Below are positions 15,777-32,554 of a stretch of 64,000 nt of DNA, in pieces; position 1 is the first letter of the stretch; each line of letters starts with the position of its first letter. The position numbers and the translations under genes were made by a program. The notes under the pieces were generated by a model, which saw only the letters and a list, made by a program, of their open reading frames with translations, did no database searches and had not been told where the DNA came from. Source of the stretch: Bradyrhizobium sp. CCBAU 53351. Its GTDB lineage: Bacteria; Pseudomonadota; Alphaproteobacteria; Rhizobiales; Xanthobacteraceae. Location: positions 3,251,501 to 3,315,500 of the forward strand of contig NZ_CP030059.1 of NCBI RefSeq assembly GCF_015291745.1. Reading direction: 5' to 3'.

Positions 15777-15780
15777 GTCG

Positions 15781-16275: not shown

Positions 16276-16556
16276 CATTCCGGGAAGGGTGACGCAAACC
16301 TGTCACGCTCTCCCGTCTAATAATAGAATCTAGGTATACCCTCTTTCTTCTCTTTCTTTCTTTTAGACGGCACAGCGTGACAGAGGGTGGTGCCGTTAGA
16401 GATTAGTAAATTCAATGTCTTAGATTCCGGAGTGGCACCACCCTGTCACGCTAGGCCTAAAACGGCACCACCCTCACTGGCACCACCCTGTCACGCTTTT
16501 CGGCTGAATCGGCACCACCCTCCCGGATCGGGAACGGCACCACCCTCTGTCACGCT
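16276..16556. repeat. Non-coding array 1 (origin-like; inverted arms plus six short repeats)
   Basis: CTGTCACGCT (16300-16309) faces AGCGTGACAG (16374-16383) across a 64-bp AT- and pyrimidine-rich core containing TATACCCTCTTTCTTCTC. A repeated word follows: AGGGTGGTGCCG once (16384-16395), then its inverse CGGCACCACCCT or GGCACCACCCT at 16434, 16463, 16479, 16510 and 16535, three of these extended by TGTCACGCT. The last copy runs into the stop codon of the neighbouring gene. The layout is repeated with different words at 30753-31029. It resembles an iteron-type origin with an unwinding element, but function is inferred. Confidence 0.85.
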
Positions 16557-17362
16557 AGACGCCAAGGGCGACCCGGCATCTCCAGTTTGGCGACCACCTC
16601 TAGCAGCCGCTCGGCGCGGCGCTTCGTCATAGACTTGTCGGGATGGTGTCGCGCCACGTTACGAGCGGAGACCTTGCCGGCGCACCGCTTCCGCACAAGC
16701 TCGCGCGTGACCCATGCGACAGCGTATTCGTGCGCCCGGTTCTGAAGCTGTTTCAGGAATGGATCGCCGGCATGGTTGACTGTTGCTGCCAGTAGAGCCG
16801 CGAGGCGCTTGTCGAATTCGCGCACATATCCGGTTGGTTCATAAGGGATCGGGGCGCCGCCGCTATCAAGGCTCGCGAGAAGATCGTCTTCATTCTCGAA
16901 TATGGGCGCGCGGTCTTTGTCCCGTTTCCGCCGTTGGCGCTCGCATGCCAACTTGCGTTTGCGCTCTGCCTTGGCGGCCAACCTCGCGTCTTCCTCAAGG
17001 CGCTCACGTTCTAGGTTTCTCCGGTGCCGGGCCTCGCGGGCGGCTCTAAGCATGGCGGCATTGGCGGCGGCCTTTGACGCGAAGAGCAGGGCTGAGGGTG
17101 CTTCAGGTTCGATCTGGGCCGGAGGCGTCTCGACGATAGGCGGCGGTGCGGCGCCATCGTCGAGAGCATCCAGCGCGGCCATCAAATCTTCCAAGGCGGT
17201 ATTGGGCGCATCGCCGCCGATCGTTACGCATCGCCCCGGCTGGCAGCCATCGGGGAAAAGGCTGCGCTCCAACTGTTCGTCTGACATACCCGCCATAGCG
17301 GGCTCGGACCAACTGGCCTTCGAATTCGTGCTATACTCTAGTTGTAGTTCTGACGCCGTCAC
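16550..17362 (-). CDS. Hypothetical protein with basic coiled coil, ends inside array 1
   Basis: A 270-residue protein I do not recognise. It has an acidic, Pro-rich N-terminal part, an Arg/Lys/Glu-rich predicted coiled coil (about 115-165), and a C-terminal helical region with KLQ/EYAVAW and RNVARHHPDKSMTKRRAERL, which could bind nucleic acid. It starts at GTG with AAGGAG eight bases upstream, after the tape-measure gene and a strong hairpin. Its stop codon lies in the last repeat of array 1, which makes it a candidate array-binding or replication protein, but this is speculation. Confidence 0.65.
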   Translation of the reverse strand: MTASELQLEYSTNSKASWSEPAMAGMSDEQLERSLFPDGCQPGRCVTIGGDAPNTALEDLMAALDALDDGAAPPPIVETPPAQIEPEAPSALLFASKAAANAAMLRAAREARHRRNLERERLEEDARLAAKAERKRKLACERQRRKRDKDRAPIFENEDDLLASLDSGGAPIPYEPTGYVREFDKRLAALLAATVNHAGDPFLKQLQNRAHEYAVAWVTRELVRKRCAGKVSARNVARHHPDKSMTKRRAERLLEVVAKLEMPGRPWRLA

Positions 17363-17381
17363 GTCGGAAACTCCTTCTGTT

Positions 17382-17418
17382 GAGCCTCAGGGATGCGGGT
17401 CCCTGAGGCTCTTATTTT
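17382..17418 (+). terminator. Perfect 12-bp hairpin with T-tract on the plus strand
   Basis: GAGCCTCAGGGA and TCCCTGAGGCTC pair around a 6-nt loop, followed on the plus strand by TTATTTT. The flanking genes are read from the minus strand, where the hairpin is followed by AACAGAAGGAG and the GTG of the next gene. It may terminate stray plus-strand transcripts or process/insulate the minus-strand mRNA after the tape-measure gene. Confidence 0.65.
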
Positions 17419-17462
17419 GGGTTCAATCAGGAATATAGCGGTCGGGGGCGGGCACGATCGGC

Positions 17463-19667
17463 CTAGCGCTTCAGCATGCCGCCCGGGCGCGTCTGGGTTC
17501 GCAATTCCTCGCCAATCATCTGCTTCGCAGCGATTCGGACTTGCTGAGCGATTTGCTGTGCAAGGGCGCGATTATCGGCCGGTGATCCGTTGGGAGCGCC
17601 GCCGTTGACGTGAATGTCGCCCATGATGAAGTTGCCGCCTTGCCCGCCGAACATGGGCGCCGCGCCGCCGCCAACCATGCCGCCATCCGCGAATCGGGGC
17701 GCCCGATTGATCTGTTCCAGGAGCGCGCGGTGCTTCGCGGTCGAGCGGGCATTGACGATGTACTCGCCAGGGCTCACGCGGGCCAAAACCCGGTCATCCC
17801 GGGGGCCGCCCGGACCTGATACTTCGCCGCCGTCCGCAAACTTCGGAATCATCCCGCCATCTGCAAAGCCAAGGCCGCCAGACAAGCCACGCATCAGCGG
17901 CTGAACGATCAGCATCTTGATCGCAGCCTCTTCGATCGCCCGGACGATGTTTTTTGCCATGGAGGCGAAACCGTCGCTTACGCTCTTGGTGCCGTCCAGA
18001 ATGTCGGTGAGGCCGGTGGTGAGCGACGACGACATGGTGTTGCCGATCGACCGCATAGCCTCATTGGTGCGCATGGCCTGCGCTTCAACCGAATTAAGGG
18101 CCTGCGACACGTCCGGATAGAGGCCCCTAAGCTGCTCCGCTATTTGAACGTCCTGAGGATCGAGGAGGGCGGTTTGACTGCCCCGCCGAATGGATAGCGC
18201 AACGGTGGCCTTCTCCACGGCTTGGGTCGCCTTGCTGTAGGCCTCAGTGACTTCCTCAATGCGCTGGCGCTGTTCGGCCGTAACGACGCCTTCGCCCTTG
18301 CCCGCCGCCGCATTGGCCTGCATGGCGACTTCCTGAAGCTGGGCCGCGATCTTGTTACGCTCGCGGGCCGCCGTGCTCAGGTCGAGGCTCTGGGCTTCCG
18401 CATTCAACGCGGCCGTGCGCTTTTCGATACTGTCAGCGGCGGTGTTGAGCTTGTCCACGTTGCTGCCGGTGCTGATCTTGGTCGGTGCCGCACCAGTGCC
18501 GCGCGACTTTGTCGGCGCCTCCGGCCCTTCCAGAACGCCGCGCTCCGAAGCATCGATCTCAGCCTGTAGCTGGTCGCGGCGCCGCCGCAAGGCGTCCTGA
18601 GGCTTCTCAGCGCCGATCGCGTCATAGATCGACGCAACGCCCGGAATGTTCGTGACCTGGGGCAGGCCACCAAGCGCGGTCCCGTTTTTGATCGCGTCAT
18701 TGATCGCGGCGAGTTCATTTCGCTTCCGCGCCGTTTCTGAGGTGAGACCGAGCTTGTTCGAATATTCGACCGCCCGCGCGATCAGATCGACCGTATCGGA
18801 CCAATAGCCCTTGATGGTGAGGAGCACCGACGCGAGATCGTCCCAGCTCGGCTTCAATGCGGTCGTGAGGCGCTGATGGGCCAAGTCCAGCCGAAGGTCC
18901 ATCTCTTTGGCGCGTTGCACCAGGGCGTTGCTGAAAATGCCGTCCGAGTTCGCAGCGGCCTCTTTGATCGTCGCAAGCATGCTGTCGGCGGAGGTTTTGC
19001 CTTGCCGCATTCGGTCGATCAGCGCCGATCCGAACATTTTCTCGCCAAGGTCATAGGCGGCGGCTTGCTGCCCGATGCTCTGCAACTGGATCATGGCCTT
19101 GAGCACGGCCTGAATTCGATCTTCCTGGGTCCGCGCGTCCCGGAACAGAACCAAGCCCTCAAGACGCTGACCCGCACCCTTCGCCAGCGTCTCGTTATAG
19201 ACGCGCAACGCCTTCTCAACGTCGCTGATCTTTTCTTCGCCAACGGTCCATTCCGACACGTCGATAGGCGACTTTTCCTTGGTCGCGTTGAAGGCGTGAT
19301 CAAGGGCGGCTTCGAGGTCGCCAGCGCTGACCTTAAGCTTCAAGGCCTCTGCCGTGAACGCCTGAAAGAATGCAGGGGCAACGCCAACATTCTGTGACTT
19401 GTCGGCAAGATCGACCATGGTCTTGAGCTGGTCGCGGGCGCCTTCGATCGCCGCCGACATGAGCTTGAAAGATCCGACGACAAGGGCGACCCGACCGGCA
19501 ACACCAAGGGCCATGCGGGCGGCACTTCCGGCCATGGAAGCACCGATAGCCTCGTTCATGTCGAGGAATTGCTTCGCGATGTTGCGCGTTGCTGATTGGG
19601 TGAGCGAGCTAGTCTGTTTCAGGCCTTCCTTCAATTGCTCAAGGTTGACGCTAACGGGGATTCTCAA
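17463..19667 (-). CDS. Phage tail tape measure protein
   Basis: A 734-residue protein that sets tail length in siphophages. Long helical and Gln/Glu-rich stretches (about 380-520) are followed by a C-terminal segment typical of these proteins, FADGGEVSGPGGPRDDRV then SPGEYIVNARSTAKH and a second FADGGMVGGG. A hydrophobic stretch lies near residues 45-75. Its start overlaps the stop of the tail-assembly chaperone gene by 4 bp, the standard coupling in tail modules. For 734 residues the predicted tail would be roughly 110 nm by the usual 0.15 nm per residue rule. No distal tail genes follow. Confidence 0.9.
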   Translation of the reverse strand: MRIPVSVNLEQLKEGLKQTSSLTQSATRNIAKQFLDMNEAIGASMAGSAARMALGVAGRVALVVGSFKLMSAAIEGARDQLKTMVDLADKSQNVGVAPAFFQAFTAEALKLKVSAGDLEAALDHAFNATKEKSPIDVSEWTVGEEKISDVEKALRVYNETLAKGAGQRLEGLVLFRDARTQEDRIQAVLKAMIQLQSIGQQAAAYDLGEKMFGSALIDRMRQGKTSADSMLATIKEAAANSDGIFSNALVQRAKEMDLRLDLAHQRLTTALKPSWDDLASVLLTIKGYWSDTVDLIARAVEYSNKLGLTSETARKRNELAAINDAIKNGTALGGLPQVTNIPGVASIYDAIGAEKPQDALRRRRDQLQAEIDASERGVLEGPEAPTKSRGTGAAPTKISTGSNVDKLNTAADSIEKRTAALNAEAQSLDLSTAARERNKIAAQLQEVAMQANAAAGKGEGVVTAEQRQRIEEVTEAYSKATQAVEKATVALSIRRGSQTALLDPQDVQIAEQLRGLYPDVSQALNSVEAQAMRTNEAMRSIGNTMSSSLTTGLTDILDGTKSVSDGFASMAKNIVRAIEEAAIKMLIVQPLMRGLSGGLGFADGGMIPKFADGGEVSGPGGPRDDRVLARVSPGEYIVNARSTAKHRALLEQINRAPRFADGGMVGGGAAPMFGGQGGNFIMGDIHVNGGAPNGSPADNRALAQQIAQQVRIAAKQMIGEELRTQTRPGGMLKR

Positions 19668-19990
19668 TTTGCTTCTCCGATGAAGAGCGCGGACAGGACT
19701 TCGTTGGCAAGGAAGACGTTGGAACCAAGCGGCTTTCCGCGCACATGGGCGTCCAAAAGCGCTTCAACCTCCCGTTCCGGGACACCGCCACCAAGCAAGC
19801 CAAGCTCAATCACGCGCTCAACGTCGTCGGTGGTGTAGTTCCCGGTTTCGAACCGGGCGAGGGATGCCGAAGGCGAATAGCCATTGATACCCCGCCATGA
19901 GATAACACGCTGCACCCAGCGGTCTGCCAGCGTGAATTTATGGATGCCCCCGGCCCAGGTGATTTTGCGGGCGCACTTGTCGTCACTCAT
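19664..19990 (-). CDS. Tail assembly chaperone, Phage_TAC_11/GTA type (copy A)
   Basis: A 108-residue protein. The pattern GGIHKFTLADRWVQRVISWR with LGLLGGGVPEREVEALLDAH and LANEVLSALF fits the small 'gene transfer agent family' chaperones that lie just before the tape measure gene and keep it soluble. A second, divergent member is at 28333-28662, far from the tape measure gene. The start (ATG 19990) overlaps the preceding gene by 8 bp; the longer open frame upstream is a shadow. Confidence 0.8.
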   Translation of the reverse strand: MSDDKCARKITWAGGIHKFTLADRWVQRVISWRGINGYSPSASLARFETGNYTTDDVERVIELGLLGGGVPEREVEALLDAHVRGKPLGSNVFLANEVLSALFIGEAN

Positions 19991-20384
19991 TGTCCAAAAT
20001 CTCCGTAATGGCGTCTTCGATCGCCTTTTGCAGGTCGTCGCGCATGGCTTCGTACGTGTTGAAAAAGAAGGGGCGCGCGGGCTGGCGGCTGGTGCCGAAT
20101 TCGAACCCTTCCGCGTAGTCATAGGGAACGCCGCTGCCATCGCGGACTTCCTTGGTGGTCAGCTCGCCGCCCGCCTGAACGATGAATTCGAGGTCATTGG
20201 AGCCGGGCACCACAACGCACGACTCCTCAAGGTGCCCGGTTTCATCGGGCGACTGCTCAAGGGCCTGCAACGCTTCGCGCTGGGCCTGGGAAAGCCGTTC
20301 CGCTTGCTCACGGACAACTGCCGATAGCTGCTCGGTGAGTCTGTCGGGGAGGGCTGCTAGGAAGGCTTCGAGATCGTCGCTCAT
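19983..20384 (-). CDS. HK97 gp10-like head-tail/tail completion protein
   Basis: A 133-residue protein of the HK97 gp10 type, found at the head-tail joint of siphophages. The C-terminal part YAEGFEFGTSRQPARPFFFN is the recognisable family block (usually 'YVEFGTSRMPARPF'). It overlaps both the terminase stop (4 bp) and the chaperone start (8 bp). Residues 1-50 are a charged helix. Confidence 0.8.
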   Translation of the reverse strand: MSDDLEAFLAALPDRLTEQLSAVVREQAERLSQAQREALQALEQSPDETGHLEESCVVVPGSNDLEFIVQAGGELTTKEVRDGSGVPYDYAEGFEFGTSRQPARPFFFNTYEAMRDDLQKAIEDAITEILDNE

Positions 20385-22015
20385 TCAAGCACCAACATGT
20401 CAGCCGTGATCGCCGGGTTATCGAGGAAGGAACGGCCGCTGTCCCCTGCAGCCGCGCGGGAAACGGCCATCCAAGTCGCCGCCGCGCCGTCAATGCGATC
20501 GGTCGATTTGCTCTTGTGAATGATGCGGTTGTCGTTCGCGTCTTTGTGGATGGCCACGTTGGCGAAGTTCCAGCGCAAGACGGGGTGTCCGCCGTGCCGG
20601 AAGTTGCCGCTGATGATCGCAGCTTCAAGGGTATTGAGGGCGGGCGATTGCGTCACCCATCCTTGGCGAATGGTGACGACGGGAAAGCCGTCTTCAATCA
20701 GGGGCGCCATGACGGCCTGGGCATAGGCCACGTCAAAGCCGATTTCTTGGACTTGAAAGCGTTCCGCTAGGCTCCGGATATAGTCCGCGACCGCCGCGTT
20801 ATCGATCACGTTTCCCGGGGTGGGAGTGATAAAGCCATCCTTGGCCCAAGAGGCGTAGTTGACCCCGTCGAGGTCGCCGCGCTTGCGAATATCTTCGTCT
20901 GGGCAAAAGAAGTGCGGCAACACCGTGTATGTCTCACCGTCCCGGAAGCACGCCACGACCGACGAAAGGTCGGTGGTCTTGGACATATCGACGCCGATCC
21001 AGCAAGGCGCGCCGCGCAAGGTCTCATAATCGATCGGCGCCGCGCCGCGATCGTAAGTCGCCATATCAACAAAGGGCGAGGTTGAGTGATCTAGCCAGAC
21101 GTTCAGCTTGTATTGGCGCAAGCTGTCCCGTTCGGTCGGGCTGTCTTTCGCCCGCGCGACATGGCGGCGGAAACCCGCAATGGACGGATAGCCGTGGGCG
21201 CTGCCAGGATTGACGCGGCGCCAAAGCTCTTCGTCGGCATAGTCGCAGTCGGGTGGCGCCTCAAAGAGGACGGGAAGGCAGGTGGGGTCATTGATCTCGC
21301 CGCGCGCGATCTTGCGGGCGCGCTCAATTACCTCATGGGCGATATTGTCCTGCCCGCGACCGGCCGTCGTGGCGACGACAAGCAAGCTGTTGTCGATCTT
21401 GTCCAGACCGTTGGTGAGAACCTTCCAAAGGCCATCGCCGCGCCAGACGTGGATTTCGTCCGCCAGGACGAATACGGGCGTGCGGCCTTCCTTGCTCGGT
21501 GCATCGGACGAAATGACCTCAAGCTCGGTCCCGTCGCGCGGATAGGCGATCTTTTTGGCGCTGTTGAAAGCGTCATAGACCTTCGTCACCGGGACAAGGT
21601 GTTTTACGTCGGCTTGGACGATGCCACGCGCTTCTTTGAAGGCGATACCGGCTTGACTGCGGTCACTGGCAGCAAAGATCACTTCGCCACCGGAAACCCG
21701 TTCAGGGCCGATGGTGTGAAGCAGGGCCAGGGCAGCGGACAGGCTTGTTTTGCGGTTGCCACGCGGGACCAGGATTACAACCGTCGATACAATCCGGTTA
21801 CCGTTGCCGTCGCGTGGCCCATAGATAGCGCGAACAATCCGTTCCTGCCAGGGATCAAGCTGGAATTGCTTGCGGGGCAGGGTGGATTTCGGGTGCTTCA
21901 AAGACCTAAGCCAGCGGACCGCCCGCTCGCCATAACCGAGCGGGTCGGGAATGGGCGAGTTGTCGTAAATCCAGTGCGGATAGGTATCAGACGATGTTGA
22001 AGGGGTTTTCATCAT
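20381..22015 (-). CDS. terL: Terminase large subunit
   Basis: A 544-residue DNA-packaging motor of the HK97-like group. The ATPase has Walker A VPRGNRKTS (83-91) and Walker B VFVLADE (181-187). The C-terminal nuclease region includes GVDMSKTTDLSSVVA and IGFDVAYAQAVM, with acidic residues at positions expected for the RNase H-like fold. It overlaps the small subunit gene by 29 bp. The unusual point is its place, downstream of portal, capsid and connector genes. Confidence 0.95.
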   Translation of the reverse strand: MMKTPSTSSDTYPHWIYDNSPIPDPLGYGERAVRWLRSLKHPKSTLPRKQFQLDPWQERIVRAIYGPRDGNGNRIVSTVVILVPRGNRKTSLSAALALLHTIGPERVSGGEVIFAASDRSQAGIAFKEARGIVQADVKHLVPVTKVYDAFNSAKKIAYPRDGTELEVISSDAPSKEGRTPVFVLADEIHVWRGDGLWKVLTNGLDKIDNSLLVVATTAGRGQDNIAHEVIERARKIARGEINDPTCLPVLFEAPPDCDYADEELWRRVNPGSAHGYPSIAGFRRHVARAKDSPTERDSLRQYKLNVWLDHSTSPFVDMATYDRGAAPIDYETLRGAPCWIGVDMSKTTDLSSVVACFRDGETYTVLPHFFCPDEDIRKRGDLDGVNYASWAKDGFITPTPGNVIDNAAVADYIRSLAERFQVQEIGFDVAYAQAVMAPLIEDGFPVVTIRQGWVTQSPALNTLEAAIISGNFRHGGHPVLRWNFANVAIHKDANDNRIIHKSKSTDRIDGAAATWMAVSRAAAGDSGRSFLDNPAITADMLVLE

Positions 22016-22367
22016 CGTCCTGGGTGTCGTTTTCGCGGACTGCCGGTCGCGATCGGGAAACAGGGGTCAACCCGAGTTCGGCCGCGAGCTGGCGCGCCGT
22101 CACCATGCTTTTGTCCTGGGCGCGGAGAAGCTTTAGGTCGATCTCGGTGCGCAAGAGCTCTTCCAACTGGCGAACCCTGCCCATGGCGACGCAATAGCTT
22201 TCCAGTGAGCCCAGGTCTGCGATGGTCAGGATGCGGCGCTTGGCGAGTTCCGGCATGACGCGGCGCCATTCGGCCTTGGCGTGCTTGCTCAGCCAGGACG
22301 GCGGCTTGGTCGTAGCATCGAGCGCGTTGGCGTCGGCGGTGAGTTCGGGTTTGCGACCGCGCATCAT
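21987..22367 (-). CDS. terS: Terminase small subunit, P27 family
   Basis: A 126-residue protein beginning RGRKPELTADANALDATTKP, with WLSKHAKAEWRRVMPELAKR and a central helix pair, matching the P27-type small terminase that recognises phage DNA for packaging. It overlaps the large subunit (29 bp) and the AP2-domain gene before it (4 bp). Confidence 0.88.
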   Translation of the reverse strand: MMRGRKPELTADANALDATTKPPSWLSKHAKAEWRRVMPELAKRRILTIADLGSLESYCVAMGRVRQLEELLRTEIDLKLLRAQDKSMVTARQLAAELGLTPVSRSRPAVRENDTQDDDENPFNIV

Positions 22368-22831
22368 GGCCTCGCAAACTCGCCAAAGTGCTTGCGCGCT
22401 GCCGTGGCGTAAGCTTCCGCCGCAGCCTCTTTAGTGGTGAAGGTGCCCAGGTTGAGGGTGCGATCGTTGACGTAGATCGATGCGCGGTAGTTGCCGTTTG
22501 GGGTTTCGCGAACTCCTTTGATGCCGAGCTTATTGCGAGCCTTGCGGCCATAGGCTGTCTGCTTAGGCGAGGCCAAGCGGAGGTTTGCCCAGCGAAGATT
22601 CGCGGGGTCATTGTCCCGATAGCTCACGCTGCGGGGCGGCCACTCGCCGGTCATGTAGAGCCAGACAAGACGGTTGGCTCGATAGACGCCGTGCTCTCCT
22701 AGACGAACCCGCGCAGCCCAGGTGTTAGGCAAGGTCTCGCCCGTGGGCCGCTTGATCAAGCCTGTGGCGGGGTCATAGACGATCAGTTGACGGAGCCGAT
22801 CAGCGGCAAGCTGTGGTTTTCGGTGGGTCAT
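22364..22831 (-). CDS. AP2-domain protein with degenerate HNH domain
   Basis: A 155-residue protein of the phage AP2/HNH group. The N-terminal half, NRLVWLYMTGEWPPRSVSYR then NDPANLRWANLRLAS, is an HNH_3-type fold in which the usual Asp-His before the 'NGD' turn reads Ser-Tyr, so nuclease activity is doubtful. The C-terminal AP2-like DNA-binding part, GIKGVRETPNGNYRASIYVN to FTTKEAAAEAYATAARKHFG, looks intact. It lies directly before the small terminase gene and overlaps it by 4 bp, so it may regulate or aid packaging rather than act as a homing enzyme. Confidence 0.8.
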   Translation of the reverse strand: MTHRKPQLAADRLRQLIVYDPATGLIKRPTGETLPNTWAARVRLGEHGVYRANRLVWLYMTGEWPPRSVSYRDNDPANLRWANLRLASPKQTAYGRKARNKLGIKGVRETPNGNYRASIYVNDRTLNLGTFTTKEAAAEAYATAARKHFGEFARP

Positions 22832-22878
22832 GCCGCAACCCTCTCGACAATTCCGAGGACGCAGAGCATTTTGTCGAA

Positions 22879-23493
22879 ATGAATCAGCGATATGACCTTC
22901 TCGCCTTTGCGTTTTTGCTGCTCTCTGCGATCCTTGCTGTATGGCTGACGGTTGGCCCCACCAATTTCGTTCTTAAAGATTGGCAGCCGCTCATGGCGTC
23001 GTTCGTAGCGCTTGGCGCCGCGACCTTGGCCTACAAGGCTGCAATGGCGAAGGTGGAGTTTGATAGGCACATCGTTGAACGCCAGGACAAACGGAAGGCG
23101 CTCGGACTGTGCTTGCGGCTCGAATTCGCGATGCAGGTTTTGAGACACCAAGCTGAAATGCTGAGGGACAAAATTCCAGCCCGCGTTACATCTAAAGCCT
23201 TCAAGCTGGAGATGAAGACGATAGACTTTGAGACACCTGAGGCGCTCGTTGAAGCTTGGCAAAACCTCGACGCTTTTCCTCCGCCTACCGCACAACGGCT
23301 GGCGGACATCCAAGCGCAATTGTACGATTTTAAGCAACTCAAGGGCGTGGTAGATCACGTTGTCTGGGATCTCAAAGCTTGGGATGCGACGCCGGAAGAG
23401 CTGCAAAGTCTGAGGTTTATAGCCAGCGAACTTGAGCATGTTACGGACGACGCGGGCAATCAGATCAGGACAATGATAGCATTCTTGCAATAG
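22879..23493 (+). CDS. Membrane protein inserted opposite to the virion operon (moron-like)
   Basis: A 204-residue protein with two N-terminal transmembrane segments (LLAFAFLLLSAILAVWL and a second around residues 35-52), then a cytoplasmic helical region. It reads against the surrounding minus-strand operon and interrupts it between the head-closure and AP2 genes. I know no specific family; size and topology resemble small membrane proteins carried by prophages as cargo. The ATG at 22879 is preferred because an upstream in-frame extension overlaps the AP2 gene start. The opposite frame is rejected. Confidence 0.65.
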   Translation: MNQRYDLLAFAFLLLSAILAVWLTVGPTNFVLKDWQPLMASFVALGAATLAYKAAMAKVEFDRHIVERQDKRKALGLCLRLEFAMQVLRHQAEMLRDKIPARVTSKAFKLEMKTIDFETPEALVEAWQNLDAFPPPTAQRLADIQAQLYDFKQLKGVVDHVVWDLKAWDATPEELQSLRFIASELEHVTDDAGNQIRTMIAFLQ

Positions 23494-23502
23494 GTTCATG
23501 AT

Positions 23503-23817: not shown

Positions 23818-23818
23818 G

Positions 23819-24235
23819 TTAGGCCACCTTCATGATGCCGGCGGCCGAGATAACGCCGTGCGAGAAAGAGCCGTGCGGATCGCGCATGAACCGGGTGAGG
23901 GTCACTGTGAGGTCGTGGCAGTCCCAGCCGTCGAGGTGCAGCACGCCATCAACCTGGGCGTCCATCCTCAAGGCGGCGACGATCGCGGACACGGCCTGCT
24001 TACACTTCTCCAAGCCGGGTTCCTGAAACCAGACATGCAAGGTCTGCTGACTAGTGGCGTTCCAACGCCCAAAGTTGGTGCTGCCCTCACCGACGTAGAC
24101 TGCAGGCATGATCTCCGGGCGCCCCGTAGCGTCCCGAATGTTGTCCGGAGGCACCAACGCCAGAAGCTCTTCGGACGCGATCAGGCGCGCCCGAATGGCC
24201 TCTTGCAGGATCAATGAGGGATCAGAAGTAGTCAT
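23819..24235 (-). CDS. DUF3168-family tail completion protein
   Basis: A 138-residue protein of the DUF3168 kind (tail terminator or completion protein). Recognisable parts are ILQEAIRARLIASEELLALV, MPAVYVGEGSTNFGRW and LHVWFQEPGLEKCKQAVSAI. It follows the connector gene, with which its start overlaps by one base, and precedes the head-closure gene. Confidence 0.82.
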   Translation of the reverse strand: MTTSDPSLILQEAIRARLIASEELLALVPPDNIRDATGRPEIMPAVYVGEGSTNFGRWNATSQQTLHVWFQEPGLEKCKQAVSAIVAALRMDAQVDGVLHLDGWDCHDLTVTLTRFMRDPHGSFSHGVISAAGIMKVA

Positions 24236-24525
24236 CAGCCGAAACAGAACGCACGATAGGGGGCCAAAAGGTCGAGGAAACCGAACGGCAATTCGGTAGC
24301 CGTCACGCCGACCAATGATGCTTCCCGGTTCTGATAGAGGTGTGCGGTCAATTGGAGCACGGCTTCATTCACCGGGGCCGGGGTGCCGTCCGCATCCACA
24401 TCGGAGGCCGTATAGGCGCCAACCCACGCCTTAGCCGCCGCCAGCTTGTCCGTAAGTAAGGCGTTGTCAGCGTCAAACGTGACGTTCAGGTGGGCCTTGG
24501 CTTGGTCCAGGGTGATGCCGGGCAT
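24235..24525 (-). CDS. Head-tail connector protein, HK97 gp6-like
   Basis: A 96-residue all-helical protein beginning MPGITLDQAKAHLNVTFDAD and ending in VTATELPFGFLDLLAPYRAF, the standard pattern of gp6-type connectors ('FGVEALLAPYR'). It should form a ring below the portal. It lies 28 bp after the duplicated small DNA-binding genes. Confidence 0.88.
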   Translation of the reverse strand: MPGITLDQAKAHLNVTFDADNALLTDKLAAAKAWVGAYTASDVDADGTPAPVNEAVLQLTAHLYQNREASLVGVTATELPFGFLDLLAPYRAFCFG

Positions 24526-24553
24526 GGTCGAAAAACTCCAGAAAACTGCTGTC

Positions 24554-24886
24554 TTATGCGGCGGGAGTGGACCGGTCGCAGCGACTTCGCGGAAACATTT
24601 TGGTGGCCCCCCGGTCTAGCTCTTCCAACGCAAGCGAGCCGACGCGCTTGCGGTAGATGCGCAACGCGCCATCGATCGTGCAGACAAGCTTGTGAAACTC
24701 AGTCTCGAATATAGCGCTGCGGGTAGGGCGAGACGTGTGCTTGCGTGCCGGTGTGGTCAGTGTGCGCTCAATGGTCCATCCTTGGCTCAGACGCCAGTAG
24801 AGCAACTGAGGTGATTGACCGGTGTGCTTGGCCCAAGCGCTGATGGTCTGGGTCATGCCGTTGTGGGTCAGGGTGCGGGCTGGCAT
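24554..24886 (-). CDS. Small NUMOD-like HTH protein (tandem copy 2)
   Basis: A 110-residue basic protein. Its N-terminal half, GMTQTISAWAKHTGQSPQLL then YWRLSQGWTIERTLTTP, repeats the motif of the gene just upstream (TILQWAKEIG...YYRISNGWPIERALTTP). The word is typical of NUMOD-like HTH modules in phage HNH loci. The start at ATG 24886 overlaps the previous gene by 19 bp. A role in DNA binding is inferred. Confidence 0.7.
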   Translation of the reverse strand: MPARTLTHNGMTQTISAWAKHTGQSPQLLYWRLSQGWTIERTLTTPARKHTSRPTRSAIFETEFHKLVCTIDGALRIYRKRVGSLALEELDRGATKMFPRSRCDRSTPAA

Positions 24887-25341
24887 TCGGTGTTCCTGGT
24901 CATCTTTCGAAAGGGTGTGGTGAGGGCGCGTTCGATCGGCCAACCATTGCTGATCCGGTAGTAGAGCACGGGGTAAGTGCACCCGATCTCTTTGGCCCAT
25001 TGCAGGATGGTTAGGCGCTTACCGCCGAATTCGTAGAGCTGGCCTTTGCGGAGCCGGGTGGAACTGGCCTTTGGAGTGGCGGTTGCTGACTTCTCGGTAG
25101 CCTTTGCGGACTTCACAGCTGCCTTGTCGGCGCGTTGCTCGATGCGCTGCTGTGCCAGCTTGCGGGTATAATCGGGGTCAAGGTCGGCAAGCGCGCACGC
25201 GCGATTGAAGTTGCCATTGGACCTGAGCAGCCAGTCATGAGCCGTTCGGCGCTCGAACGTGGTGCAATCCGACTTGCCGGACGCGTCGGCAATGGCTTGG
25301 GCGATAACGGCGCGCCAAAGGGCCTGCTCTGGGTTAGCCAT
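24868..25341 (-). CDS. Phage protein with C-terminal NUMOD-like HTH (tandem copy 1)
   Basis: A 157-residue protein: an N-terminal helical domain (MANPEQALWRAVIAQAIADA, with a DWLLRSNGNFNRACALADLD stretch), a Lys/Ala/Thr-rich linker (about 80-105), and a C-terminal module LYEFGGKRLTILQWAKEIGC to SNGWPIERALTTP shared with the next gene. It overlaps the HNH gene by 8 bp. The combination hints at a DNA-binding partner of that nuclease. Confidence 0.7.
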   Translation of the reverse strand: MANPEQALWRAVIAQAIADASGKSDCTTFERRTAHDWLLRSNGNFNRACALADLDPDYTRKLAQQRIEQRADKAAVKSAKATEKSATATPKASSTRLRKGQLYEFGGKRLTILQWAKEIGCTYPVLYYRISNGWPIERALTTPFRKMTRNTECQPAP

Positions 25342-25678
25342 GTGTGCGCTCCCTCGATTGCTTGCGGCTGGCATGGCAAGGCGAGCTGGCGAGGGGCTGC
25401 CAGTTGGTGCGGTCCCAGAAAAGCTTCATGTCGCCGCGATGGGGAACCTTGTGATCGACACAATCCGCGATGCGACCACAGCCACATGCACAGAACCGGT
25501 TCTGGGGTAGGGCAAGGAATTCTTTGCTCTCGCGGCGCCACTTGGAGTCATAGCCGCGTTGGTGTGCGTTGGGCCGGAGGCGATCAGCCTCAGCCTTGCG
25601 CTTGACCTGACAGGGGCAAAGCTCGCCTGCCCAAACGAGCTTGCCGCAGCTACAGACGCGACGGGGTTTGAAGGGCAT
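25334..25678 (-). CDS. HNH endonuclease
   Basis: A 114-residue HNH nuclease of the packaging-associated type. The N-terminus carries a small Cys cluster (CSCGKLVWAGELCPC). The core is RFCACGCGRIADCVDHKVPH, with catalytic His in the VDH motif, followed by NWQPLASSPCHASRKQ. HNH proteins next to terminase often nick DNA during cos/pac maturation; here the gene lies among head genes and 3 kb from terminase. It begins on the stop of the previous gene (TAATG). Confidence 0.9.
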   Translation of the reverse strand: MPFKPRRVCSCGKLVWAGELCPCQVKRKAEADRLRPNAHQRGYDSKWRRESKEFLALPQNRFCACGCGRIADCVDHKVPHRGDMKLFWDRTNWQPLASSPCHASRKQSRERTHG

Positions 25679-26253
25679 TAGGAGCGACCCTTTCCAATGG
25701 CGTTGATCTCTTTGCGGAGATCGGCAGGCATGCCCTTGGTCGCGTCTATTGTCTCGGTGTCGTCGCGCTTGCCGAAGATGGCCGCAAGCATTTCAACGCG
25801 ACCTTCCTTAGCGTTGATGATCTCTGCCGCTGTTGCGGCCCAGGTCGCTTCCGGCGTCCATCCAAGCCAGCCGGTGCCGATCTGGTAAAGCTGGGTGAAA
25901 TACTCCTCGAATGACAGAGGCTCACCGGACTGAGGTTCCGAGTCGCTGTTAGTGACGCCGCATAGGGCGGGAATGAATGCGAGAAGCTGTTCGCGCGCTG
26001 CCATGAGGGCAGGGATCATGCTCGGGTCTTCGTTGCGGGCATATTCAGCCCAGCCCAATTGATCGGCGCAGGTCATGGTGATTAGGTCGGAAATTGCCGT
26101 AAGATTGCCTTCGCTGATTGCCTGAAACAGCGACTCAAAGCCGCTGTAGGAATGAGCGAGACGGAATGCCGCCCGCAAAGACGGGCGCAAGGTCAGCGTC
26201 ACGCTTGGCGAGAGCGTGATGACCAATTCGTCATTTGCGAGCGGCATAACCAT
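25678..26253 (-). CDS. Tail-assembly-chaperone-like protein (third)
   Basis: A 191-residue protein. Its C-terminal half, FEEYFTQLYQIGTGWLGWTP then EATWAATAAEIINAKEGRVE, resembles the short tail-assembly chaperones in which 'LGWSPEEFWRATPREL' is conserved, fused here to an N-terminal beta-rich part of about 90 residues (LVITLSPSVTLTLRPSLRAA). Its position right after the major capsid gene is unusual for a chaperone. It starts on the capsid stop codon (TAATG). Confidence 0.6.
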   Translation of the reverse strand: MVMPLANDELVITLSPSVTLTLRPSLRAAFRLAHSYSGFESLFQAISEGNLTAISDLITMTCADQLGWAEYARNEDPSMIPALMAAREQLLAFIPALCGVTNSDSEPQSGEPLSFEEYFTQLYQIGTGWLGWTPEATWAATAAEIINAKEGRVEMLAAIFGKRDDTETIDATKGMPADLRKEINAIGKGRS

Positions 26254-27410
26254 TAGGGCTTCGTCGACTTGATGACGACGGCCGCTTCGCTCAGAAGCGG
26301 CTTGCCGCCGACGCGACGACGCCAGCGAACCTTGACGATACCGTTATCCGCGCCCGTCAGGTCATCGGTGCGAACGGCGAGACCGACGCGATCGACAATC
26401 TGGTAAGCAGACGCCATGTCACCGAACACCACCGGGTAGGTTGTGCCCGTCGTCGCCGGCAGAAGGCTCATGTCGATCGACTCATAGACCGGGCGGCCCA
26501 AGAGCGTCGGCGGGGTGCCGTTGGCGAGGCCATCCGACCAGATCGGCCCTTTGGTGCCGATGACGATGTCGGCCATTTTGCGAATGAGCCCCATGGTCTC
26601 GCGGCGCATCATCCAAGAGCCGTTGGCCGCATAGGCGCCGGGCAGCTTGTAGAATGCGTCAATCAGTGCTGTGACGATGTCGGAGCCGTCCGCCGCAGCG
26701 TTCACGAATGCATAGTTCGCGGGAGTATTGAGCAGGCCCGTCGGCTTGCCGTTGCCGTCGCCGATCATGAAAGCCTTCGCTTCCACCTTGCCGGTGATCT
26801 TGGCGATATGACCCGCGACGAACGAAAGCAGGTCGATATCCGCATCTTCCAACAACTGTTGGCTGATGGGGATATAGCGGGCGTTTTCGAACGTCTTGAT
26901 GTTGAGCTGGCCGAATACCGGCTCGGTAGCGGTGCGGTTGCCGGTTTCCGTGACCCAGCCTTCGCCGTCCGCGTCGGTTTCCAGCGTCGGAATGTAGACT
27001 TCGGTGGTGCCGATGGTCATAGCACTGGCGAGACCGCGAAGCGGCGAATACTGGCGCACCTTCTCCAGCACGCTCTTGCCGTATTCCGGGCTGACGACGT
27101 ATCCGCCCGCCGTGGTGGTGCCAAGATTGAGCGTCTTGCGCTCAAGGTCGTCCAGGGCGCCGGCACCGCCGCGCAAATACTTGTTCAGCGCCTTGGTTTC
27201 GAGACCGGGCTCATTGTCGTTCGCGGCACGATTGCCGGGCCGGTTCACCTTTGCCTCGATGCGGTCCAAACGCTCGGTGAGCTTGGTGTTGTCGTTTGCG
27301 GCCTTCGTTTCGAGGGCGGCTTTCAGGTCCGCCAGCTCTTTAGCAACCGACGCGATCGGGTCGTCGGCCTCGCCGGTATCCTTGAATTCGAGTGCATGGG
27401 CAGTTTTCAT
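26253..27410 (-). CDS. Major capsid protein, HK97 family
   Basis: A 385-residue capsid protein. Residues 1-100 form the charged, coiled-coil delta domain normally removed by the protease encoded just upstream. The HK97 core begins at TTAGGYVVSPEYGKSVLEKV and includes LETDADGEGWVTETGNRT, ARYIPISQQLLEDADIDLLS and MIGDGNGKPTGLLN. The order protease-capsid is conventional even though flanking genes are not. Confidence 0.95.
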   Translation of the reverse strand: MKTAHALEFKDTGEADDPIASVAKELADLKAALETKAANDNTKLTERLDRIEAKVNRPGNRAANDNEPGLETKALNKYLRGGAGALDDLERKTLNLGTTTAGGYVVSPEYGKSVLEKVRQYSPLRGLASAMTIGTTEVYIPTLETDADGEGWVTETGNRTATEPVFGQLNIKTFENARYIPISQQLLEDADIDLLSFVAGHIAKITGKVEAKAFMIGDGNGKPTGLLNTPANYAFVNAAADGSDIVTALIDAFYKLPGAYAANGSWMMRRETMGLIRKMADIVIGTKGPIWSDGLANGTPPTLLGRPVYESIDMSLLPATTGTTYPVVFGDMASAYQIVDRVGLAVRTDDLTGADNGIVKVRWRRRVGGKPLLSEAAVVIKSTKP

Positions 27411-27425
27411 TGGGTCGTCTAGCTC

Positions 27426-27923
27426 CTAGGATTTCAGCGTTGCCGTGAAACGCTTGATGAGATCGGCCACGGCACGCGCCGCGTCGTCGGATTTGGTGCC
27501 GGTTACCCGGGCACGCGGATGGGCGGGGTTGCGCACGATCGACGTTTCGAACACGTCCAGTGCGGTGATGAGACGCCGCGCGCCTTGCTTGATCGCGGTT
27601 TTGGTTCGGAAGCCGATGCTGAGACCGCTGGCGAGTTGGCCCCGGATCATGGCGAGCACAGATCGCGCGCGCGGCCGATCCATATGCAGCTTGCCTTTCA
27701 CTATCAGGCCTTCCTCCGTTTCTTTCACTTCCGTCCAGGTGCCAATGAGGTCGCTGGGGTCGTGATTGAAAAGAATGGGCATGTCGGTGACAGCGATGTT
27801 GAAGGCGCCTTTCTGAATCAGGTCGCCATAGCTGTCTGGGCCAGCATTGAACGGCCAAGCGATGCCGGTGATCTCGCCTTCGTCACTGACGCTCAGCGTT
27901 GCTTTGATCTCTAGGCGGTCCAT
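27426..27923 (-). CDS. Prohead protease, HK97 family
   Basis: A 165-residue serine protease (U35 type) that cleaves the capsid delta domain. The catalytic His is in ILFNHDPS (His54) and Ser in LASGLSIGF (Ser102); FETSIVRNPAHPRA follows. The ATG overlaps the stop of the previous gene (TGATG). Confidence 0.92.
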   Translation of the reverse strand: MDRLEIKATLSVSDEGEITGIAWPFNAGPDSYGDLIQKGAFNIAVTDMPILFNHDPSDLIGTWTEVKETEEGLIVKGKLHMDRPRARSVLAMIRGQLASGLSIGFRTKTAIKQGARRLITALDVFETSIVRNPAHPRARVTGTKSDDAARAVADLIKRFTATLKS

Positions 27924-28336
27924 CAGTTATTCCGATAGGCGCTGTAAAGATTGACGACGCGATCGGCAGCTTGCGCGACCGGCGCCGCCGACGTGCCGCT
28001 TCTGATTTTCAAGTAGCGAATGGCGAACCATCCCCATGACGCAAGGCGGATGGCGCGGTTCGCTGCTGCTTGAAAAGAGACTTCGCCATTTTCGTCCCAG
28101 AGATCGCGATAGGTCACCCCGTCGCTGCTAACTTGGAACGTGATCACGGCAGCCGTCCACGCGCTCGGAAATTCGATGCTCGCCAGTGCGTGGTTTGCCA
28201 GATCGATAGGCGCGGAGAGACTTTGTCCATTGGCAATGGTCGCTGCCGCGCTGTAATCGACGCGCGAGCCGTCGCTTGTCACGACTATCGGCAGCGGGTT
28301 GGCGTCGTTAACGGGCGTGCCGGTGGCAAAAGTCAC
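27923..28336 (-). CDS. Beta-rich phage virion-associated protein, unknown role
   Basis: A 137-residue protein with features of phage decoration or minor structural proteins: VVTSDGSRVDYSAAATIANG, FQVSSDGVTYRDLWDENGEV, and RYLKIRSGTSAAPVAQAADR. It reads as a beta-sandwich with no transmembrane segment. GTG at 28336 overlaps the chaperone stop (GTGA). It could be a head decoration protein; with no other tail-tube candidate in the element a tube role cannot be excluded, but it lacks tube hallmarks. Confidence 0.65.
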   Translation of the reverse strand: MTFATGTPVNDANPLPIVVTSDGSRVDYSAAATIANGQSLSAPIDLANHALASIEFPSAWTAAVITFQVSSDGVTYRDLWDENGEVSFQAAANRAIRLASWGWFAIRYLKIRSGTSAAPVAQAADRVVNLYSAYRNN

Positions 28337-28662
28337 TTTGAAGTTTCCTTTTCGTTGGGATTGCCGCACAACGTCCGCTCAAGGATCTTTGCGGCAAGTT
28401 CGTATGTTTCGATGAGGGGGCGGCCTTCGACATAGGTCGCGATTAGCTCGTGCGCGCGCTTGGGCGTCATGCCGCCGCCGATGAGGGCAAGCCGGATAGT
28501 TTCGTTGATGTCGGCCTGGGCGAAGTTGCGCGCGAATAGGCGATTGGCGATAGCGCCGATACCGGAGCCGCACTTGACTTGAAGCTCTTCAATCTCGCGC
28601 TTGGTGAGGCGGAATGTGTGTTCGCCATCGCCAAAGAACGCGATGTAAGACAGATCAGTCAT
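28333..28662 (-). CDS. Phage_TAC_11/GTA-type small protein (copy B)
   Basis: A 109-residue paralogue of the chaperone at 19664-19990. Shared features are a beta start (GDGEHTFRL versus GGIHKFTL), a central helix, LALIGGGMTPKRAHELIATY versus LGLLGGGVPEREVEALLDAH, and a C-terminal helix. It lies between gpI-like and virion-protein genes, 9 kb of operon away from the tape measure gene. The ATG at 28662 overlaps the gpI-like stop. Confidence 0.72.
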   Translation of the reverse strand: MTDLSYIAFFGDGEHTFRLTKREIEELQVKCGSGIGAIANRLFARNFAQADINETIRLALIGGGMTPKRAHELIATYVEGRPLIETYELAAKILERTLCGNPNEKETSK

Positions 28663-29333
28663 CAACCGGCCTCCCCAAAGGCGGTCTCGATTGAGCCGGC
28701 GTTGTCGGCATAGACGCTGATATCTTCCACATCCGACCACGCTTGAACCGGGGTCGATCCGACAAAGCACTCGCCGTAGATCAGAGGAACGGCGTTACCT
28801 TGCTTGCCCGAATTGCCGATGTTGCCGCCGTTCACGCTGAGCGAATTGGATGCCTGGGCTTGGTCGCCGGCAGGTTTGGTGAGCAGAGTAGAAGCGCCGG
28901 ATAGCGCAAGACCGAGACCGAGCGCGGCCAAGGTGCCGTAAGTTGTACCGCTCAAAATGCCAGAAGCCGCAAGCGGGGTGGCAAGTGTGCCGCCTGACAG
29001 AAAGATTGCGCCACCGACAAGGGCCGCACCGAGCACGATCTTGGTGGTGCCCTTCGCAGTATTGGAGGCCGCGCCCTTTGCGACCGGAATGACGTGCAGG
29101 TCGGCTTGACCCAGATTGAACTGGTTGATCAGATCGATGTCGAGCTGCATCCCGCTGCGCTTGTCGCCCCGCACGAGCTTATAAGCCCCGTGCTCAAGCG
29201 ATTTGACGAAGCGACCGGGGAAAGCGCAGTTGAGCGCGCGCAACGCTTCAGCGGCCGTCGCTACGTCAAAGCGATGGGACGCGCCGAACTCTTTGCCGAG
29301 CTTGCCGTGCAGGTGGACTAAACGCATCGTCAT
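28662..29333 (-). CDS. Lambda gpI-like tail assembly protein
   Basis: A 223-residue protein of the lambda tail-tip assembly group. It has an N-terminal ubiquitin-like part (VHLHGKLGKEFGASHRFDVA), a glycine/alanine-rich hydrophobic centre (about 95-160), and a C-terminus with GNIGNSGKQGNAVPLIYGEC, typical of gpI. In lambda this gene precedes the central fibre gene J, but here portal lies before it and no J-like gene is found, so it is displaced. Its ATG overlaps the portal stop. Confidence 0.8.
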   Translation of the reverse strand: MTMRLVHLHGKLGKEFGASHRFDVATAAEALRALNCAFPGRFVKSLEHGAYKLVRGDKRSGMQLDIDLINQFNLGQADLHVIPVAKGAASNTAKGTTKIVLGAALVGGAIFLSGGTLATPLAASGILSGTTYGTLAALGLGLALSGASTLLTKPAGDQAQASNSLSVNGGNIGNSGKQGNAVPLIYGECFVGSTPVQAWSDVEDISVYADNAGSIETAFGEAG

Positions 29334-30553
29334 GCGGCCTCCGCTTGGGCGTTGCCGTTGAGCTTGCCGCCCTGATGCGCTGAGCTGGTATTGGGGTTTT
29401 CGAAGATGTCGCCGCCTTCATAGGCGGGATAGCCAAAGCCAAGTTGGCGGGCTTCGTTCGGGTTCAGGATGCGAGCGGATACAGTAGCGCTGAGCGCCTG
29501 GGCGCGCGCGAGAAGGTCGGCGCGGGCGAAGCCGTCAACGTTGAATTCAATACAGTATTGCTTGCGCTCTTCCGGGGGCAGAAGCTTCAACTCAAGCTCT
29601 TGCTCGAAAGACTTCAGTCGGGGCAGTAGAGCCTGCGAGAGGAATTCTTGGCCGATGGCTTCAATCGATCGCGGCTGAGCGCGGTCAACCTGCATCAGCA
29701 TATGCAGCGGGACGCGCCAAAGTCTGGCGATCTCCGCGACCGCATAGGTGCGCATTTCAAGGAACTGAGCATCAACGCTGTTGAGCGTTAGCGCTTGCCA
29801 GTTGAAGTCGCCGGGCAAGATTGCCGTGCCGCCCGATTTGTTGCCGCCGTGAGCAGCATTCCAGGCCGTGGCGACTTTCGTGAGCGCTTCCTGGGTGGCG
29901 TTGCCCTTGGCCGTGAGGACGCCGCTGGGGCGGGCGCCCTTACCGAACAGCCTCGCTGCATGGCGCTCCAAAACCAGGGCGAGCGCGATGGCTTCGCGAC
30001 CTTCCCCGACCAGGCCTTTGCGCGGATCATAAGCCGGGGTCGGAAGATGGATCAGGTCCGTACCCGCGATCTCGCGACCATCGAGCTTGTAAGTCGGCTC
30101 AACGTCGGAGTCGTCAACAGCTACCGGGTTGGTCCGGGGATCAAGCCGGATCAGCTCAGCGGGCTTGCCACCGTCAACGCGATTGATGAGCGCGAAGCCG
30201 CCGTGCGGCTGCAACAGCGCGTCGGCCATGAGCTGGGTGCGGAATAGGGCAGCGGGGCTGAAGGTATTCGGCGCGTCATGCAGGAGCGCGTAGAGCGGGT
30301 GTTCGGGGGCTTTCTCTTTGCCGCCGTCATCAAGCTTGCGATAGATGTGGAGCGGTAGTGAGCCCGCCGCTTCGCTGATTGATCGCACCGCGCACGCGAC
30401 GGGCGCGCAGGACATGGCGGAGTAAGGCGAGACGGTCACGCCTGAAAGGGTTGGGCTCGCGCCGAACATCTCGACAAGCCAAGGCTCAGGCGAGGAGATG
30501 CCTGACTTGGTTTCGAGTCCGATCAGTTGTTTGAGGCGCGACGTGAGAGACAT
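29330..30553 (-). CDS. Portal protein, HK97 family
   Basis: A 407-residue portal subunit that forms the dodecameric DNA gate. Family segments include VSPYSAMSCAPVACAVRSIS, GSLPLHIYRKL, HPLYALLHDAPN, LPGDFNWQALTLNSVDAQFL and RIFGVPLHML-like WRVPLHMLMQVDRAQPRSIE. It is the first gene of the minus-strand virion operon, which normally begins with terminase. No clear Shine-Dalgarno precedes the ATG; instead a stem-loop lies directly upstream. Confidence 0.93.
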   Translation of the reverse strand: MSLTSRLKQLIGLETKSGISSPEPWLVEMFGASPTLSGVTVSPYSAMSCAPVACAVRSISEAAGSLPLHIYRKLDDGGKEKAPEHPLYALLHDAPNTFSPAALFRTQLMADALLQPHGGFALINRVDGGKPAELIRLDPRTNPVAVDDSDVEPTYKLDGREIAGTDLIHLPTPAYDPRKGLVGEGREAIALALVLERHAARLFGKGARPSGVLTAKGNATQEALTKVATAWNAAHGGNKSGGTAILPGDFNWQALTLNSVDAQFLEMRTYAVAEIARLWRVPLHMLMQVDRAQPRSIEAIGQEFLSQALLPRLKSFEQELELKLLPPEERKQYCIEFNVDGFARADLLARAQALSATVSARILNPNEARQLGFGYPAYEGGDIFENPNTSSAHQGGKLNGNAQAEAA

Positions 30554-30557
30554 AGAC

Positions 30558-30611
30558 CAAAGGGGTTTGCGCGTCCGCTGAATTGCGGATGCGTGGTGTA
30601 GTTCCCCTTTG
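30558..30611 (-). promoter_or_regulatory. Leader stem-loop before portal gene
   Basis: CAAAGGGG (30558-30565) pairs with CCCCTTTG (30604-30611), enclosing an inner stem GCGTCCGC / GCGGATGC. The structure ends four bases before the portal ATG, which has no good ribosome-binding site. It could control translation of the first gene of the virion operon. A possible -10 element TATATT (minus strand) lies near 30660. Confidence 0.45.
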
Positions 30612-30752
30612 TTTGCTCTGAAGTCGTGATCGCGTTTTCTCGCGAGCGATCACCGACGCAAATATAATCTCACGGTTTCAAATTGCGCGCAAGCGGAATT
30701 TCGGATTGTCGAAATTGTATACTTACAGGCGCGACGGCGGCGGAGGAGTTTG

Positions 30753-31029
30753 CATTCCGGGAGCAGTTTTCCATTCCGGAGGTGGGCTGACCAGGGCGGT
30801 GGCTGTAACGCCGCGCCGACTATCTAATAGATATACCCTCTTACTTCTCTTCTCTTACTTAGACGACACAGCGTTACAGGATCGCCCCGGTCATGATTTC
30901 TTGTGCTTTCAATTAGATAAGGCTGAAAATCGCCCCGGTCATGTAACGCTCGGCCTCAAATCGCCCCGGTCATGTAACGCCGCAAATCGCCCCGGTCAGT
31001 AACGCTGCGTTACAGGATCGCCCCGGTCA
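30753..31029. repeat. Non-coding array 2 (origin-like; inverted arms plus five short repeats)
   Basis: CTGTAACGC (30803-30811) faces GCGTTACAG (30871-30879) across a 59-bp AT- and pyrimidine-rich core with TATACCCTCTTACTTCTC. The word ATCGCCCCGGTCA then occurs at 30881, 30929, 30960, 30986 and 31017, each flanked by GTAACGC or GCGTTACAGG. Two CATTCCGG words precede the block, as one does in array 1. The arms and core are alignable with array 1 but the repeated word differs. It lies upstream of the portal-first operon. An ORF over this region is not considered a gene. Confidence 0.85.
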
Positions 31030-32503: not shown

Positions 32504-32554
32504 TCTGGGAGACTAGGGGTCGGAGGTTCAAATCCTCTCGCTCCGACCATTTTT
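32504..32554 (+). repeat. attR: 51-bp copy of the tRNA-Pro 3' part
   Basis: Identical to 14039-14089, covering the tRNA from the anticodon loop through CCA and five T residues. The bases upstream differ from the tRNA 5' half, so this is a fragment and not a functional tRNA gene. It marks the right boundary of the element. Confidence 0.92.

What the first reader, a model, noticed from the sequence alone, without database searches (positions are those of the whole stretch)
16276..31029. Paired origin-like non-coding arrays bracket the virion operon
Arrays at 16276-16556 and 30753-31029 share a precise architecture. Each has a CATTCCGG word, an inverted arm pair (CTGTCACGCT/AGCGTGACAG in array 1, CTGTAACGC/GCGTTACAG in array 2) and an AT- and pyrimidine-rich core with TATACCCTCTT and CTTCTC. 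Each then has TTAGACGxCACAGCG and a run of short repeats carrying the arm word. The repeated payload differs: GGCACCACCCT in array 1, ATCGCCCCGGTCA in array 2. Two paralogous arrays flanking one operon with diverged specificity suggest twin replication origins, packaging/replication controls, or sites captured from two relatives. I know no described element with this layout.
Basis: partly seen in the sequence, partly recalled or inferred. Interest (0 to 1): 0.8.

Follow-up and report, generated by a model that had tools for sequence, protein, structure and literature searches.

The report
Paired origin-like arrays in phage island
An 18.5-kb phage-like island in a Bradyrhizobium-type genome carries two related repeat arrays that look like DNA replication origins: one sits beside its probable matching initiator gene, the other has different repeats and no matching gene, and looks like a leftover or second origin.

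Summary
Two ~280-bp non-coding arrays share arm words, an AT-rich pyrimidine core and short repeats with different payloads, far above chance. They lie in an 18.5-kb island bounded by 51-bp direct repeats at tRNA-Pro.

Array 1 is most likely the replication origin, fired by the 270-aa protein next to it. Relatives of that gene occur in 10 of 264 other genus genomes and one virus contig; all 12 loci including the window have a repeat array directly 3' of it, mostly with a private payload: the layout of PICI origins. In 8 sibling elements a probable HUH-type Rep gene follows tape measure instead, and neither array is found. In one, G557, homology to the window ends ~13 codons into rep: a swappable replication cassette.

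Array 2 lies between r96 and portal. Its payload was found in no other array, the genome search found no second initiator of this family, and 11 of 11 relatives read upstream of portal lack it. G557 is colinear on both sides and keeps 9 bp of a payload, as if it had lost the array. I read array 2 as an orphan origin left by an initiator swap; a working second origin is not excluded. Packaging-site and integrase-site readings are contradicted.

The parts
14007..14084 (+). tRNA-Pro (GGG), integration site
   Evidence: ARAGORN
14039..14089 (+). att direct repeat, left copy (51 bp, exact)
14495..15544 (-). tyrosine integrase (95% identical to the one in the G493 element at the same tRNA)
15519..16001 (-). 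small HTH_17-like ORF (excisionase/AlpA-like guess); the C-terminal part is the conserved gene
   Evidence: E 0.009, below cut-off; 96% over residues 81-160 with G493
16276..16556 (.). array 1: arms CTGTCACGCT/AGCGTGACAG around an AT/pyrimidine core, then payload GGCACCACCCT x5 (+1 inverted); inferred replication origin
16550..17362 (-). 270-aa protein (248 aa from the internal ATG), inferred origin-binding initiator: long helix plus helical HTH-like C-domain
17323..17440 (-). 5' leader and first ~13 codons shared (89%) with the HUH-type rep gene of G557; cassette swap breakpoint at 17323
17463..30553 (-). virion operon: tape measure, tail tube, neck, TerL, TerS, HNH genes, head-tail joining, capsid, protease, GTA gp10-like, tail assembly, portal
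30750..31029 (.). array 2: arms CTGTAACGC/GCGTTACAG around a homologous core, payload ATCGCCCCGGTCA x5 (+1 degenerate inverted); orphan origin-like array
31228..31518 (+). r96, small gene with relatives in several related elements
31642..32394 (+). r250, no Pfam match; 89% identical in G557
32504..32554 (+). att direct repeat, right copy

Best explanation
Array 1 is the replication origin of an 18.5-kb integrated phage-like island, and the 270-aa protein encoded next to it is its initiator. The protein's C-terminal HTH-like domain would bind the payload repeats; the conserved arms and AT-rich core would be where other (probably host) factors act and the strands open. Payload and initiator diverge together between elements, as expected of replicons that avoid cross-talk. 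Array 2 is a second origin of the same family with another specificity. It lies in the divergent r96/portal spacer, belongs to the ancestry shared with element G557, and has no cognate initiator that I could find in this genome. It most likely became an orphan when the replication cassette (rep plus array 1) was swapped in at the other end of the operon. Shown: anatomy, homology, gene-array adjacency, cassette swap, absence of array 2 in the relatives read, scar-like remnant in G557. Inferred: binding, strand opening, initiation, order of events.
For: (1) Rep-profile search: 11 of 265 genus genomes including the own; with IMG/VR contig L028 that makes 12 loci, and in 12 of 12 read by eye a repeat array starts directly 3' of the gene. 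(2) Arm-pair pattern in the same 265 genomes: own twice, G377, G425, G427, G546. The reversed control matched 8 genomes, so the count means nothing; the point is that 3 of the 4 foreign hits lie beside rep, which 10 foreign genomes have. G546 was not followed up. (3) PICI origins are described as lying immediately 3' of the initiator gene with two iteron sets around an AT-rich stretch (PMC6092414, passages). (4) After tape measure 8 siblings carry another gene with an HxH motif (invariant in the 7 of 8 aligned) and weak REP_ORF2-G2P hits in 6 of 8 (E 0.0004-0.027, below cut-off); none has the rep family, and neither array's payload nor a paired arm is found in these 8. Homology of G557 to the window stops at 17323, inside rep. 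(5) C-domain identity and shared repeated words correlate, Mantel r 0.79, p 0.0009, 12 elements. (6) G557 matches 32394-31020 and 30749-28287 (83%, 79%), leaving out array 2, and keeps TGACCGGGG where the first payload begins. (7) One rep match in the own genome.
Confidence: 0.6

Rival explanations
1. Twin working origins: both arrays fire in the same element, array 2 through the shared arms or through another element's initiator (a landing pad for a co-resident island).
For: Both arrays are intact, with perfect payloads, arms and core; related elements with other payloads occur in the genus, so a second initiator could meet array 2.
Against: Payloads and arm variants differ consistently between the arrays; one initiator of the family found in this genome; 0 of 11 relatives read have a second array.
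Confidence: 0.2
2. Arrays are operators/promoters: array 2 controls the divergent r96 and portal genes, array 1 the rep/integrase side.
For: Array 2 lies between divergent genes.
Against: Much of the spacer is conserved in G557 and part of it in G567 without array 2; array 1 lies 3' of rep. The sigma-70 scan of 30500-31300 found none, but shuffles gave 0.7 on average, so it says little.
Confidence: 0.13
3. Arrays are packaging (cos/pac) sites.
For: HNH + TerS/TerL set present in the island.
Against: G557 has TerL 94%, TerS 85%, HNH1 73% identical and neither array; the rep-array pair also lies in 20-kb stretches of G421, G456, G374 and G517 where tblastn with this terminase found none.
Confidence: 0.04
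4. Arrays are integrase arm sites of attP.
For: They lie within 2.3 kb of the att repeats.
Against: G493 has a 95% identical integrase at the same tRNA but a payload that differs in its second half; G425 and G427, where the window's integrase has no tblastn match, have the same arm word as array 1.
Confidence: 0.03

Closest known systems
PICI/SaPI replicons (pri-rep + ori)
   Same: Integrase island at a tRNA; origin immediately 3' of the initiator gene; repeats on both sides of an AT-rich stretch (PMC6092414, passages)
   Different: Initiator slot holds a small helical protein without a primase or helicase family match; the island carries a large virion operon including tape measure; two arrays of different payload here
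Capsid-forming PICIs (recalled; listings only)
   Same: Island with its own head and packaging genes
   Different: This island also has tail tube and tape measure; no Pri-Rep seen among the genes tested
Lambda O / iteron plasmid origins (recalled; listings only)
   Same: Initiator binding direct repeats beside an AT-rich unwinding stretch
   Different: No family match to the initiator; repeats inside the rep gene, as recalled for lambda O, occur in siblings G557 and G567, not in the window element
Satellite P4 ori + crr (recalled; the search listed nothing usable)
   Same: Two separate cis sites with related repeats in one small element
   Different: P4 sites share one initiator (recalled); here payloads differ and no P4-type primase-helicase was found in the rep slot
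Bartonella GTA with run-off replication origin (PMC2697382, passages)
   Same: Alphaproteobacterial link of a phage-derived origin and virion genes
   Different: There a Twinkle-like helicase at the origin and the host genome packaged in 14-kb pieces; here integrase, att repeats and a private origin

Membership tests
PICI | Integrase and specific attachment site | tested here: met
   Integrase; 51-bp att repeats at tRNA-Pro
PICI | Pri-Rep primase/helicase initiator | tested here: not met
   The gene in the initiator slot has no Pfam/PHROG match, its relatives bear no function name; no primase/helicase among the other island ORFs given to Pfam or PHROGs (not every ORF was given)
PICI | Origin directly 3' of initiator, two repeat sets around an AT-rich stretch | tested here: met
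   Anatomy only:
PICI | AlpA or Stl type regulator | tested here: inconclusive
   HTH_17 E 0.009, below cut-off
PICI | Induction and mobilisation by a helper phage | not testable with these tools
   -
Gene transfer agent | No excisable self unit | tested here: not met
   Integrase and att repeats define a mobile unit
Gene transfer agent | Packages host DNA at large | not testable with these tools
   -
cos/pac packaging site | Conserved in elements with the same terminase | tested here: not met
   G557 has TerL 94%/TerS 85% identical and neither array
HUH rolling-circle Rep (sibling elements, not the window) | HxH metal motif and REP_ORF2-G2P profile | tested here: inconclusive
   HxH invariant in the 7 of 8 aligned; profile hits in 6 of 8, all below cut-off

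The most novel reading that the evidence does not exclude
A Bradyrhizobium island family with swappable initiator/origin cassettes, in which this element keeps a second, intact origin of foreign specificity that can be fired by another resident island's initiator, so that it replicates both by itself and by hitch-hiking.
Probability: 0.18. Interest if true: 0.75.

Novelty: new variant of a known kind. Interest (0 to 1): 0.55.

Why it matters
It points to an apparently undescribed family of initiator plus repeat origin in Bradyrhizobium phage-like islands and in islands near defence-like genes, and shows replication cassettes exchanged between an HTH-like and an HUH-type initiator in otherwise colinear elements. 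The orphan second array makes a clean test of whether foreign-specificity origins are relics or are kept for cross-activation. I found no paper on such islands: the searches returned no papers; one search returned 13 (10 listed), of which I looked at passages of one (PMC10127595); some searches gave listings on related or unrelated topics. Only open-licence PMC text was searched.

Tried and rejected
Core pattern elsewhere: 0 of 296 other genomes of the order with up to 1 mismatch; one IMG/VR hit, L010, is an AT-rich, apparently coding coincidence. Array-2 payload pair elsewhere: G355 of 264 other genomes, read by eye as a coding repeat, and 37 IMG/VR stretches; none of these 37 has an arm word within 300 bp (minus-strand matches without arms and with at most two payloads were not printed), and many have spacings that are multiples of 15, as in pentapeptide-repeat genes. 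Of 46 IMG/VR arm-pair stretches three (the G425, G427 and G377 elements) contain rep; the other 43 were not looked at further. An apparent payload match inside rep at 17230 was dropped: 3-mismatch hits are common. G395 (L008) was dropped: stops inside, not found by the profile. Core-like stretches in G561 and G565 scored 29 and 31 against a shuffled maximum of 26 but lie inside coding genes. Phage records: no relative of the 270-aa protein; TerL matches all below 60% identity. Genome contigs with alignment A1: no relative. PDB fold search: nothing with E<=0.001; the second look is too weak to name a fold. A PDB sequence search with the G557 HUH-type protein found nothing. MAFFT over 13 array cores was too gappy to use; comparison was by eye. 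PADLOC and Pfam on the islands served context only.

Full report
WHAT IS THERE. The window lies in an 8.34-Mb genome. I call it Bradyrhizobium-type because the close named relatives of its genes are Bradyrhizobium. A 51-bp exact direct repeat, 14039-14089 and 32504-32554, marks an 18.5-kb island at tRNA-Pro. It holds an integrase, a small HTH_17-like ORF, array 1, the 270-aa gene, a virion operon from tape measure to portal, array 2, and two small rightward genes r96 and r250. The arrays are real and far above chance.

ARRAY 1 AND ITS GENE. Single-sequence search with the 270-aa protein found 7 of 265 genus genomes including the own; one of these, G395, has stops inside and was dropped. A profile of 25 family sequences, the window's included, found 11 of 265 including the own. 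With the IMG/VR contig L028 I could read 12 gene-array junctions. In all 12 a repeat array begins at the 3' end of the gene by eye; in G417 the first copy overlaps the ORF end and the automatic word count shows no payload. Payloads in the gene's reading direction: window GGGTGGTGCC; G425, G427, G377, G493 GGGTGGAACAG; L028 GGGTGACACG; G443 GGGTAGCACG; G456 GGGTGATACGG; G417 GGGTCCAACAA; G421 AGTCCGYAACAA; G374 GTCTGACACGAAAG; G517 TGTCCCGGACGA. The window and the G425 group share the arm word and the payload half GGGTGG, not the other half, at about 31-33% C-domain identity. I assign the payload to the initiator and the arms to something more conserved (inference). No arm word was recognised by eye in G456, G374 and G517. 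The arm-pair pattern by itself is not specific: its reversed control matched 8 of 265 genomes.

THE CASSETTE SWAP. Using the portal as bait I found seven Bradyrhizobium loci in genome contigs (L051-L056, L060; the other four of the 11 are distant, 30-34%) and twelve IMG/VR records with 72-95% portal identity (L062-L073; 179 stretches encoded a relative, 80 were kept, and the other 68 of these are 33-36% and were not used). Of 16 genomes or records searched with the rep profile, 4 had it. Of the 12 without, 8 are virus records that carry after tape measure a different gene: within about 0.5 kb in seven, 1.6 kb in G560; it has an HxH motif and weak REP_ORF2-G2P matches. The other four are whole genomes whose slot I did not read. 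The eight records hold neither payload and no paired arm; a single arm word occurs in G560. In G557, whose portal, capsid and TerL are 94-96% identical to the window's, DNA homology runs to position 17323, about 13 codons into rep, and then stops. Replacement of one Rep type by another in the same slot is the best indirect evidence that the 270-aa gene and array 1 form the replication module; it rests on the HUH reading, which is itself below the curated cut-off. In G557 and G567 a repeat cluster lies inside the HUH-type gene.

ARRAY 2. G557 aligns to the window over 32394-31020 and 30749-28287, leaving out array 2. At the break G557 has TGACCGGGG just after the conserved AAATTTCCC flank, the start of array 2's first payload read leftward. 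I take this as a scar: the common ancestor had the array and G557 lost it. The right side of the gap can be aligned in more than one way, so the exact deletion end is open. G567 has no array there either. In 11 distinct elements with sequence upstream of portal (L051-L056, L060, L062, L065, L070, L073) the 1.2-1.5 kb before portal hold no arm word and no repeat cluster, and no core-like match above background. L063, L067, L069, L071, L072 are duplicates (exact 600-bp portal piece shared); L064, L066, L068 begin at portal; G377's contig ends before it. Array 2's payload pair was found in no other array. The genome search found one initiator of this family. Hence an orphan: a relic of an initiator swap, or an origin waiting for another element's initiator. 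Its perfect copies argue mildly against a long-dead relic.

ALTERNATIVES. Packaging sites are contradicted by G557; integrase arm sites by G493 and G425/G427; a promoter or operator role for array 2 is not excluded.

COMPARISON WITH KNOWN SYSTEMS. The layout matches PICI origins as described in PMC6092414 (passages), but the gene in the initiator slot is not a recognisable Pri-Rep. The island is not a GTA in the usual sense, since it has an integrase and att sites. Whether it is a satellite or a small complete phage was not settled; no lysis gene turned up among the genes given to Pfam or PHROGs, and not every ORF was given.

LIMITS. Everything on function is inferred from sequence. The codivergence test rests on 12 elements with one tight clade. 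Most of the 25 protein relatives could not be read as DNA.

Noticed in passing
L045, L046, L047, L021/L022, L023: The same rep-array pair sits in stretches without a detected virion operon: an integrase was identified in G421, G456, G374 and G443, and defence-like genes nearby in G456 (SIR2, type I restriction), G374 (HmaB/HmaC-like, PRTase-CE, SIR2-like) and G443 (DrmA, PRTase-CE, HEPN). Island limits were not set, except a 40-bp repeat of tRNA-Arg in G421.
   Followed up: partly
L046:12434-12553, L021:18815-19049: By similarity G456 and G443 keep only the last ~40-45 codons of the tape measure gene just before rep, as if virion genes had been deleted or a needed DNA site were kept there.
   Followed up: no
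L231:4585-4682, L232:4376-4559: Repeats (GTCCGATAAGGTCACG-like) lie inside the HUH-type rep gene in G557 and G567, a possible intragenic origin.
   Followed up: no
P0002, P0003, P0016, P0018: Four initiator relatives lie on unnamed contigs of 17.5-18.2 kb, about the island's size, possibly free circles or virion DNA; others of the list lie on contigs from 1.2 kb to whole chromosomes.
   Followed up: no
L044:18246-18353: The G493 element keeps a 36-codon remnant of another integrase (G425 type) next to its present HTH17/integrase pair: integrase cassettes seem to swap too; in this 11.9-kb element portal and capsid were not found by similarity.
   Followed up: partly
window 22364-25678: Three or four HNH endonuclease ORFs are interspersed in one virion operon.
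   Followed up: no
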